Assembly: GCA_902511025.1 (NCBI GenBank)
Contig: CABXDP010000003.1
Coordinates: forward strand, 1-63,503
DNA length: 63,503 nucleotides
Reading direction: 5' to 3'
Source: an uncultured Gammaproteobacteria bacterium
Lineage (GTDB): Bacteria > Pseudomonadota > Gammaproteobacteria > PS1 > Pseudothioglobaceae
The notes under the pieces were generated by a model. It was not told where the DNA came from. It was given only the letters and a program-made list of their open reading frames with translations, and searched no databases. The translations under genes and the position numbers were made by a program. Below, piece after piece: positions 3,904 to 49,016 of this stretch. Position 1 is the stretch's first letter; each line of letters starts with the position of its first letter.

Positions 3904-3988
3904 AAGCATTTTTTGTTGTTTTTTTGCAACTTTATAGCTATTTATAGTCATTTTTGCTTAATTTTTAGCTTTTTTTCATCAATAAAAC

Positions 3989-4015
3989 TTGACACTCAGT
4001 TTTTGTTACTATAAA
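3989..4015 (+). promoter_or_regulatory. Candidate sigma70-type promoter (TTGACA - 15 bp - TATAAA) for the first microprotein gene
   Basis: TTGACA at 3989-3994 and TATAAA at 4010-4015; same arrangement and spacing before the paralogue. Confidence 0.55.
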
Positions 4016-4024
4016 AAGTGCATC

Positions 4025-4044
4025 AATCGGCAAAGATGCCGGTT
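4025..4044 (+). promoter_or_regulatory. 5'UTR stem-loop AATCGGC-AAAGAT-GCCGGTT
   Basis: 7-bp stem, 6-nt loop; matching element in front of paralogue at 4459-4478. Confidence 0.6.
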
Positions 4045-4070
4045 ATCTTTATAATTAATGGAGAGAAAAT

Positions 4071-4286
4071 ATGTTAAGTAATGTAACTGGTTGGATAAAA
4101 AAATTAACAGAAGCAGGCGTCGGTCTTGTTGGACTTGCAATTGTTGCTCAAGTAATCTTTGGTTCAAGCGTAGCATTCCTTCCTGGTGATGTTATTGCTA
4201 ATCTAATGAGTATTATTGGATCACTTGGAGCTGCTGGCTTAGTTGGTTTGGTCACAGCTGGATTGTTGTACCAAATCCTCAAGTAA
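4071..4286 (+). CDS. 71-aa hydrophobic two-helix microprotein (copy 1), function unknown
   Basis: ATG with GGAGAG ribosome-binding site; ~60% identical by eye to the protein at 4504-4722 with promoter and terminator. Confidence 0.8.
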   Translation: MLSNVTGWIKKLTEAGVGLVGLAIVAQVIFGSSVAFLPGDVIANLMSIIGSLGAAGLVGLVTAGLLYQILK

Positions 4287-4307
4287 ACATTCCATATTAG
4301 CTCAATG

Positions 4308-4336
4308 AAAACCCGCCGCAAGGCGGGTTTTTTTTT
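4308..4336 (+). terminator. Rho-independent terminator of microprotein copy 1
   Basis: AAAACCCGCC-GCAA-GGCGGGTTTT stem with GNRA-type loop followed by T-run. Confidence 0.9.
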
Positions 4337-4422
4337 GTACATTTGAATATTTCTAATGTTGTCTTAAGTCCAATTAATGCAACAGATTGAGCGTTTTTTC
4401 CTATAAATGCAACTTAGAAAAC

Positions 4423-4449
4423 TTGACATAATTATATTGATACTATAAA
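4423..4449 (+). promoter_or_regulatory. Candidate promoter (TTGACA - 15 bp - TATAAA) for microprotein copy 2
   Basis: TTGACA 4423-4428, TATAAA 4444-4449. Confidence 0.55.
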
Positions 4450-4458
4450 AAGTTCATC

Positions 4459-4478
4459 AATCGGTAGTGATGCTGGTT
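4459..4478 (+). promoter_or_regulatory. 5'UTR stem-loop AATCGGT-AGTGAT-GCTGGTT
   Basis: Same stem as 4025-4044, kept by G-U compatible substitutions. Confidence 0.6.
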
Positions 4479-4503
4479 ATCTTTCAATAAATGGAGAGAA
4501 GAT

Positions 4504-4722
4504 ATGTTAGACAAAGTAATTGGTTGGGCAAAAAAATTAACAGAGGCAGGTGTTGCTGTAATCGCACTTGCTGTTGTTGTTCAAATAATCTTTGGCGGTG
4601 ATGCTGCATTCCTTCCTGGCGATGTAACTGGCAGCCTGATTAGTATTATTAGTGAACTTGGCTCTGCCAACTTGGTAGGACTAGTTGCTGCGGGGTTAAT
4701 ATACAAAATCTTTACTAGGTAA
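4504..4722 (+). CDS. 72-aa hydrophobic two-helix microprotein (copy 2), function unknown
   Basis: Paralogue of 4071-4286: shared V.GW.KKLTEAGV...FG...AFLPGDV...LVGLV.AGL.Y.I. Confidence 0.8.
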   Translation: MLDKVIGWAKKLTEAGVAVIALAVVVQIIFGGDAAFLPGDVTGSLISIISELGSANLVGLVAAGLIYKIFTR

Positions 4723-4741
4723 CATAGCATATTAGCTCATT

Positions 4742-4770
4742 AAAAAACCCGCATTTAAGCGGGTTTTTTA
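4742..4770 (+). terminator. Rho-independent terminator of microprotein copy 2
   Basis: AAAAAACCCGC-ATTTAA-GCGGGTTTTTT. Confidence 0.88.
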
Positions 4771-4789
4771 TTATCGAAAGGATTAGAAG

Positions 4790-43751: not shown

Positions 43752-45291
<1,540 letters not shown>

Positions 45292-45301
45292 AGAAAAGCA
45301 T

Positions 45302-45327
45302 GAGTGTTCACACAAGTTGTTTGATAA
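45302..45327 (+). other. 3' arm of 16S precursor processing stem
   Basis: Complementary to 43621-43645. Confidence 0.75.
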
Positions 45328-45381
45328 TATAAAAGTAAGAGAAAAAGACCAATAACCCAAAGTCAAGTTATTTGATATTAA

Positions 45382-45458
<77 letters not shown>

Positions 45459-45482
45459 TTTTCTGGGTTATTAGTTTTAATT

Positions 45483-45558
45483 GGGGCTATAGCTCAGCTG
45501 GGAGAGCGCCTGGTTTGCATCCAGGAGGTCAGCAGTTCGATCCTGCTTAGCTCCACCA
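45483..45558 (+). tRNA. tRNA-Ala (TGC)
   Basis: Cloverleaf GGGGCTA...TAGCTCC-A-CCA, anticodon loop TTTGCAT. Confidence 0.97.
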
Positions 45559-45571
45559 TTTTTCTCAAGTG

Positions 45572-45613
45572 AAAACTTAAATAAGATTTAGTCCTAAGTT
45601 TTATTTAAGTTTT
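45572..45613 (+). other. Near-perfect ~20-bp stem-loop in 16S-23S spacer
   Basis: AAAACTTAAATAA (45572-45584) / TTATTTAAGTTTT (45601-45613) perfect, inner GATTTAG/CTAAGTT pairs with two G-U. Confidence 0.85.
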
Positions 45614-45644
45614 TATACCCTTTCCGGTTTTAACTGGATTGGGA

Positions 45645-45659
45645 GCTCTTTAACAATTT
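45645..45659 (+). promoter_or_regulatory. boxA-like antitermination element before 23S
   Basis: GCTCTTTAACAATTT. Confidence 0.7.
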
Positions 45660-45721
45660 GGATATGAAGTAAAGTTTGTTAAATACAATACAACGTAAGG
45701 TGTATTGCATTGACACAACAA
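45660..45721 (+). other. 5' arm of extended 23S precursor processing stem
   Basis: AAGTAAAGTTT, AAGGTGTATTGC and TTGACACAACAA pair with 48778-48817. Confidence 0.8.
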
Positions 45722-45862
45722 TTTCAAAAAATATGGATTCTCATTGATAGATTAATTTCTATCATTGATAAATAGAATTCACTGATTGTATCGAAAGATA
45801 TAACTAGTGACTTCACAAGGTGAAATACGAAACCATTTAACCCAGATACTTTGGGGTTATAT

Positions 45863-48752
<2,890 letters not shown>

Positions 48753-48777
48753 ATAACACCCAAGATATTTGGAGATG

Positions 48778-48817
48778 TTGTTGTGTCAACAGGCAATATG
48801 CCTTATAAACTTTACTT
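48778..48817 (+). other. 3' arm of extended 23S precursor processing stem
   Basis: TTGTTGTGTCAA / GCAATATGCCTT / AAACTTTACTT complementary to 45667-45721. Confidence 0.8.
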
Positions 48818-48897
48818 TATCCATTTTGTTATACCTCTGGTATAAAAACTTTTTAATTCATTTGAGTTAGGTTTCGACCTAATTCGAATAAGCAGTT

Positions 48898-49016
48898 TGC
48901 TTAGTGATAATAGCAAGTGTGACCCACCTGATCCCATCCCGAACTCAGAAGTGAAACCACTTAGCGCCGATGGTAGTGTGGGGTCTCCCCATGTGAGAGT
49001 AGGACATTGCTAGGCT
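48898..49016 (+). rRNA. rrf: 5S ribosomal RNA
   Basis: CCGAACTCAGAAGTGAAAC...TAGCGCCGATGGTAGTGTGGGGTCTCCCCATG; GCTTAGTGA/TTGCTAGGC terminal helix. Confidence 0.93.

What the first reader, a model, noticed from the sequence alone, without database searches (positions are those of the whole stretch)
3985..4772. Tandemly duplicated mini transcription unit encoding two novel-looking hydrophobic microproteins
Two consecutive units each have a TTGACA-15bp-TATAAA promoter, a conserved 5'UTR, a GGAGAG ribosome-binding site, a 71-72 aa ORF and their own strong hairpin terminator. The proteins are ~60% identical by eye: a short amphipathic GW.KKLTEAG start, a hydrophobic helix, a conserved FG...AFLPGDV turn and a second hydrophobic helix (LVGLV.AGL.Y.I). 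I recognise no family. The layout (own strong promoter and terminator, retained duplicate in a compact genome) suggests a highly expressed, dosage-dependent membrane peptide. Holin-like, leaderless bacteriocin-like, pilin-like or membrane-organising roles are all possible; none is shown here.
Basis: partly seen in the sequence, partly recalled or inferred. Interest (0 to 1): 0.75.

Follow-up and report, generated by a model that had tools for sequence, protein, structure and literature searches.

The report
Unnamed tandem small membrane-hairpin proteins
Two neighbouring genes in a streamlined ocean bacterium each carry their own strong-looking promoter, RNA hairpin leader and terminator and encode a tiny two-helix membrane protein from a widespread family that no database consulted here names and whose job is unknown.

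Summary
Two stand-alone units (3985-4338, 4419-4772) encode 71- and 72-aa proteins that are 62% identical. Both are under purifying selection (median dN/dS 0.21 and 0.17). The TTGACA element is present in all 43 Thioglobaceae (SUP05 clade) copies compared. The 5'UTR holds a hairpin with compensatory base changes. One part needs care: the -10 can be read as TATAAA after 15 bp or TAAAAA after 17 bp. Copy A has codon usage like ribosomal proteins; copy B does not.

The proteins belong to an unnamed family. It is found in most of the genus and many sister genera, always between ubiA and dapD where the flanks are held. It also occurs in about 11% of sampled Alphaproteobacteria, in some Nitrospinota, and rarely in Verrucomicrobiota, Nitrospirota and other gammas. 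There it sits in unrelated neighbourhoods, often as a tandem pair, and pairs arose independently at least three times. No Pfam, NCBIfam, PHROG, PADLOC, PDB or fold match is significant.

Best reading: an abundant stand-alone inner-membrane hairpin protein (N-in/C-in) that probably self-assembles through glycine/alanine faces and affects membrane structure or permeability. The function is inferred, not shown. Holin, bacteriocin and T4SS-pilin membership is unsupported.

The parts
3989..3994 (+). -35 element TTGACA of unit A
   Evidence: sequence; TTGACA present at the matching place in all 43 Thioglobaceae copies compared
4010..4017 (+). -10 region of unit A: TATAAA (4010-4015, 15-bp spacer) or TAAAAA (4012-4017, 17-bp spacer)
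   Evidence: sequence; block TACTATAAAAAGT conserved in the genus, TAAAAA/TAAATT at 16-17 bp in sister genera
4025..4044 (+). 5'UTR hairpin A: AATCGGCA aaga TGCCGGTT
   Evidence: (stem 4025-4044); compensatory changes counted
4060..4066 (+). Shine-Dalgarno-like GGAGAGA of unit A
   Evidence: sequence; conserved in relatives
4071..4286 (+). ORF A, 71 aa, two-helix hydrophobic protein
   Evidence: dN/dS 0.21; CAI 0.68
4307..4338 (+). Rho-independent terminator of unit A
   Evidence: terminator kept in the Thioglobaceae relatives
4423..4428 (+). -35 element TTGACA of unit B
4444..4451 (+). -10 region of unit B: TATAAA (15-bp spacer) or TAAAAA (17-bp spacer)
4459..4478 (+). 5'UTR hairpin B: AATCGGTA gtga TGCTGGTT
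4493..4499 (+). Shine-Dalgarno-like GGAGAGA of unit B
4504..4722 (+). ORF B, 72 aa, paralogue of A; the single copies of sister genera are closer to B
   Evidence: dN/dS 0.17
4741..4772 (+). Rho-independent terminator of unit B
   Evidence: (perfect 12-bp inverted repeat)

Best explanation
Each unit is a self-contained, probably constitutive gene for a small inner-membrane hairpin protein. Shown by sequence or prediction: a short amphipathic start carrying K/R; a first long helix with small residues on one side and a conserved Gln near its outer end; a conserved turn FG..xF..GDVxGN; and a broken second helix with a glycine run (LGxxGLVGLxA), ending in K/R. Inferred: both ends face the cytoplasm (positive-inside rule), the glycine/alanine faces pack the hairpin and bring copies together, and A and B form homo- or mixed oligomers in the cytoplasmic membrane. 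There they act as an abundant structural, proteolipid-like component that changes membrane packing, curvature or permeability. The strong promoter, leader hairpin and private terminator would give a short, stable, monocistronic mRNA for a high-copy protein. The tandem duplicate would raise dose and/or supply a second, slightly different subunit. Anatomy and family are well supported; the cellular role is inference.
For: AF2 model from 46 relatives: helices 2-30, 41-54 and 58-71, mean pLDDT 87.8. Column conservation over 57 diverse members: T13, E14, G16, A21, A23, Q27, F30, G31, F36, G39, D40, V41, N44, G53, G56, L57, G59, A62, R/K72. Amphipathic N-terminus (hydrophobic moment about 0.5) followed by two hydrophobic segments. 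Charges sit at the two ends, and D40 in the loop. One distant relative carries a long Lys/Thr-rich C-terminal tail, easiest to reconcile with a cytoplasmic C-terminus (L187). Purifying selection. Promoter and terminator conserved. Leader hairpin covaries: 92% of cells paired against 82% in shuffles, and 17 cells with double changes against 5.3, 0/500 shuffles for each. CAI of A is 0.68, above all 41 window genes compared. The gene stands alone in unrelated neighbourhoods across lineages: a co-directional neighbour within 60 nt upstream in only 3 of 58 loci. Tandem pairs arose independently in SUP05, Nitrospinaceae and an alphaproteobacterial-type clade.
Against: No transcript, peptide, localisation or oligomer data. 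B's codon usage is ordinary. pTM is only 0.56 and a monomer model cannot show oligomers. The third helix (58-71) is short for a full membrane span on its own, so the second half could be re-entrant or lie on the surface. The patchy distribution (absent in 4 of 28 other genus members and in several sister genera; 0 of 338 good-quality genomes) shows it is not a universal structural need.
Confidence: 0.4

Rival explanations
1. It is a small accessory subunit or regulator of a larger membrane complex (respiratory, transport or secretion) whose genes lie elsewhere, as CydX or KdpF are for theirs.
For: Size, two helices, a buried conserved Gln27 and an invariant turn suggest a specific contact surface. 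Stand-alone placement is compatible with a partner elsewhere.
Against: No consistent neighbour outside Thioglobaceae. The patchy spread over phyla matches no obvious complex. Each unit has its own strong promoter and terminator rather than riding in an operon.
Confidence: 0.25
2. It forms a pore or channel (holin-like, stress-triggered or MscL-like) that changes membrane permeability.
For: Predicted N-in/C-in two-helix topology with an N-terminal amphipathic segment, as in class II holins and MscL (general knowledge). No MscL was found in the own, 66% complete, genome.
Against: Profile comparison with MscL gives 3% probability. No PHROG match is significant; the best holin is E=2.7. No phage hit. 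Apparently constitutive and chromosomal, with no endolysin beside it.
Confidence: 0.15
3. It is a two-helix pilin-like subunit (VirB2/TrbC type) that is pulled out of the membrane into a filament.
For: Weak, sub-threshold resemblances: TIGR03745 over nearly the whole length (E=0.0013, 18.5 bits against a cut-off of 52.5), a VirB6-type model (best E=0.00014), DUF2976 0.0098 and T4SS_pilin 0.12.
Against: All are far below curated cut-offs. hhalign with a DUF2976 member gives 1.6%. No signal peptide or prepilin leader. No conjugation genes recognised beside it.
Confidence: 0.08
4. It is a leaderless bacteriocin or a small membrane toxin.
For: Short, hydrophobic, amphipathic start; the tandem arrangement recalls two-peptide bacteriocins (general knowledge).
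Against: Same chromosomal place through a whole family with purifying selection; no immunity or antitoxin gene beside it; no PADLOC or PHROG match.
Confidence: 0.06

Closest known systems
TIGR03745 / DUF2976 (integrating conjugative element small membrane protein)
   Same: about 75 aa mature size, two hydrophobic helices; one relative aligns over nearly its whole length at E=0.0013
   Different: 18.5 bits against a cut-off of 52.5; the conjugative protein has a signal peptide and sits in a transfer cluster; profile comparison gives 1.6%
MscL (PF01741)
   Same: amphipathic N-terminal helix, two helices, N-in/C-in, an FG then a short turn
   Different: MscL is about 130 aa with a cytoplasmic helix bundle; hhalign probability 3%; no Foldseek match in the PDB
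Class II holins
   Same: two helices, both ends inside, similar length (general knowledge)
   Different: no significant PHROG match; not in a lysis cassette
Small proteolipids (PMP1_2, Pmp3/YqaE)
   Same: very small hydrophobic membrane proteins; PMP1_2 is a weak hit for 4 of 57 members (best E=0.00063)
   Different: PMP1/2 are about 40-aa yeast proteins with one membrane helix; no Pmp3 (PF01679) hit appeared in the listings; likely a composition match
E. coli lpp-type gene layout
   Same: very short monocistronic unit with strong promoter and terminator for an abundant envelope protein (general knowledge)
   Different: Lpp is an outer-membrane lipoprotein with a signal peptide; here there is neither

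Membership tests
VirB2/TrbC/DUF2976 T4SS pilin | family profile over its curated cut-off | tested here: not met
   best 18.5 bits against 52.5; T4SS_pilin E=0.12 at best
VirB2/TrbC/DUF2976 T4SS pilin | cleavable signal peptide before the two helices | tested here: not met
   helix 1 begins at residue 2 with no n/h/c leader in members; judged by eye, no predictor was run
VirB2/TrbC/DUF2976 T4SS pilin | lies in a transfer (virB/tra) gene cluster | tested here: not met
   the own neighbours are gidA-rsmG-tatD-rluC-ubiA / dapD-ABC-polA by their sequences, and no gene set recurs in other lineages; neighbours were not scanned for T4SS models
MscL (PF01741) | MscL profile match | tested here: not met
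   no hit in hmmscan; hhalign 3%
Phage holin | match to a holin family or a lysis-cassette context | tested here: not met
   PHROG holin E=2.7, none at 0.1 with A3; no phage hit
Phage holin | forms lethal membrane lesions | not testable with these tools
   needs expression
Type IV or type III prepilin | prepilin peptidase motif before the hydrophobic helix | tested here: not met
   no leader; N-terminus M[LF]xx[VI]xxW[IV]KKLTEAG
Leaderless or circular bacteriocin | linked immunity or export genes and antimicrobial activity | tested here: not met
   no recurring partner gene; activity not testable
Any named Pfam/NCBIfam family | score over the curated cut-off | tested here: not met
   searches show none over cut-off; alignment-wide scans list only weak E-values without bit scores, best 0.00014

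The most novel reading that the evidence does not exclude
A categorically new family of membrane-organising or channel-forming micro-proteins, shared by streamlined ocean bacteria and several other phyla, that evolves again and again into tandem two-subunit (A/B) hetero-oligomers and is among the most abundant membrane proteins of these cells.
Probability: 0.2. Interest if true: 0.8.

Novelty: new variant of a known kind. Interest (0 to 1): 0.5.

Why it matters
Streamlined marine bacteria keep few genes, so a small membrane protein kept with its own conserved promoter, structured leader and terminator, and duplicated independently in several lineages, points to a real and uncharacterised membrane function in abundant ocean microbes. 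Tryptic peptides from so hydrophobic a 7-kDa protein are few, so routine proteomics would tend to miss it (inference from the sequence).

Tried and rejected
Pfam, NCBIfam, PHROG and PADLOC scans of the two proteins and of 55-57 relatives gave only weak, composition-like hits. PDB sequence search with three profiles: nothing below 0.09; the inovirus coat hit at E=0.53 vanished with wider profiles. Foldseek against PDB and BFVD: no match. MscL and DUF2976 profile comparisons: 3% and 1.6%. Rfam: only sub-threshold matches near the family, mostly on the terminator hairpins. Phages and plasmids by tblastn: none, though low-complexity masking weakens this test for hydrophobic queries. Literature searches found no description or abundance report. 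A whole-genome download was not available.

Full report
What is there. The window carries two tandem units at 3985-4338 and 4419-4772. Each has an exact TTGACA, an AT-rich -10 block, a leader with a hairpin, GGAGAG, a short ORF and a Rho-independent terminator. ORF A (4071-4286) encodes 71 aa and ORF B (4504-4722) 72 aa; they are 62% identical. The two units align in register over promoter, leader, CDS start and terminator at 79-83%. The only correction concerns the promoter: TATAAA is 15 bp from TTGACA, but sister genera keep TAAAAA or TAAATT at 16-17 bp, so the working -10 may be TAAAAA at 17 bp.

Where it lies. Upstream are genes whose sequences read as gidA, rsmG, tatD, rluC and ubiA; downstream, on the other strand, dapD and an ABC ATPase, then polA and argS (names from my reading of the translations). 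The nearest named relatives are SUP05 / 'Ca. Thioglobus' / Pseudothioglobus genomes. In all 16 Thioglobaceae loci compared the family sits between the same ubiA and dapD clusters. Of the 28 other genus members searched, 20 have two or more copies, 4 have one (one of these, G017, lies at a contig end) and 4 have none; many of these genomes are incomplete. One genus genome on a single contig has three (A-B-A, locus L044). Sister genera have one copy; those compared are closer to B than to A.

Selection and regulation. Median pairwise dN/dS is 0.206 for A and 0.165 for B (Nei-Gojobori), so both are maintained proteins. TTGACA is present at the matching place in all 43 Thioglobaceae copies compared. 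The leader hairpin lies at a nearly fixed distance from it, and on 17 distinct leaders 92% of cells pair, with 17 double-sided changes against 5.3 expected from shuffles and 0/500 shuffles as high. Relatedness inflates such counts, but sliding the arms by 1-3 columns drops pairing to 16-52%. The likely use is a 5' stem that protects the mRNA (inference). Codon usage against the own ribosomal proteins is 0.68 for A (ribosomal mean 0.69; 41 window genes mean 0.60, maximum 0.66; P=0.007) and an ordinary 0.59 for B (P=0.28). So high expression is plausible for A and unproven for B.

The family. A profile search of GTDB representatives found relatives in Nitrospinaceae, Opitutales, Nitrospira, Reyranella/Rhodospirillales and other Alphaproteobacteria. 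Sampled prevalence: 36 of 338 Alphaproteobacteria, 5 of 60 Nitrospinota, all with two copies, 2 of 146 Verrucomicrobiota, 8 of 369 in the own class, and 0 of 338 good-quality genomes in a phylum draw. All six genomes of one small-genome alphaproteobacterial order have it (locus G+C 27-29%). In 22 of 58 loci the family is a tandem pair, sometimes with a strongly diverged second member. A tree of 104 members places the SUP05 duplication, the Nitrospinaceae duplication and the alphaproteobacterial one separately. The alignment is only 73 columns, so deep forks are weak, but the Nitrospinaceae B copies nest inside the Nitrospinaceae A copies (100/87) and the SUP05 genus copies lie in their own clade (96/97). 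Outside Thioglobaceae no neighbour recurs and the unit is free-standing: median 212 nt to the upstream gene, and a co-directional gene within 60 nt upstream in 3 of 58 loci.

Anatomy. AF2 with 46 relatives gives helices 2-30, 41-54 and 58-71 (pLDDT 87.8, pTM 0.56). Conserved positions over 57 diverse members are T13-E14-x-G16 at the membrane entry, small A21 and A23, Q27, F30-G31, F36, G39-D40-V41 and N44 in the turn, then L52-G53-x-x-G56-L57-V58-G59-L60 and A62, ending in R/K72. K/R at both ends and D40 in the loop predict both ends in the cytoplasm. A distant relative has a long Lys/Thr-rich C-terminal tail, which fits a cytoplasmic end (L187).

What it is not, as far as tested. No library match is significant and no fold match exists. 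The nearest leads are T4SS small membrane proteins (TIGR03745 E=0.0013, 18.5 bits against a cut-off of 52.5) and a VirB6-type model (best E=0.00014); profile comparison with a DUF2976 member (1.6%) and with MscL (3%) fails. No phage or plasmid homologue was found, with the caveat of low-complexity masking, and the viral contig scan could not be run.

Mechanism. The best-supported picture is a stand-alone, probably abundant inner-membrane hairpin protein whose glycine/alanine faces pack it and bring copies together. Repeated tandem duplication suggests more dose, or two-subunit oligomers, or both. A structural or permeability role in the membrane is my most likely reading (0.4); an accessory subunit of an unlinked complex is the main rival (0.25). 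None of the functional steps is shown.

Novelty. The proteins belong to a family that none of the libraries consulted names. Small two-helix membrane proteins as a class are well known and their functions vary widely, so I rate it a new variant of a known kind, with a categorically new reading not excluded.

Noticed in passing
43752-49015: A complete rRNA operon lies in the window: 16S, tRNA-Ile, tRNA-Ala, 23S, 5S.
   Followed up: partly
L187:5650-6201 (minus strand): A gammaproteobacterial relative of the family is fused to a long Lys/Thr-rich (KTKTKT) C-terminal tail resembling histone-H1-like or AlgP-type repeats; a membrane hairpin with a nucleic-acid-binding-type tail.
   Followed up: no
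L192:1969-2202, L193:6284-6511, L188:5705-5947, L181:5986-6243: In several Alphaproteobacteria and others the second gene of the pair is so diverged that only permissive profile scores find it, so pairs are probably undercounted.
   Followed up: partly
L044: One single-contig genus genome (G028) has three tandem copies, A-B-A.
   Followed up: partly
L082 and L085; L099 and L101; L080: Near-identical family members with shared neighbours sit in bins named from different classes (SAT1367 gamma and UBA828 alpha; Rhodobacteraceae Water_Bin34 and gamma SP335), and a 'Nitrospirae' bin carries the Nitrospinaceae pair; some MAG labels must be wrong, or transfer was very recent.
   Followed up: partly
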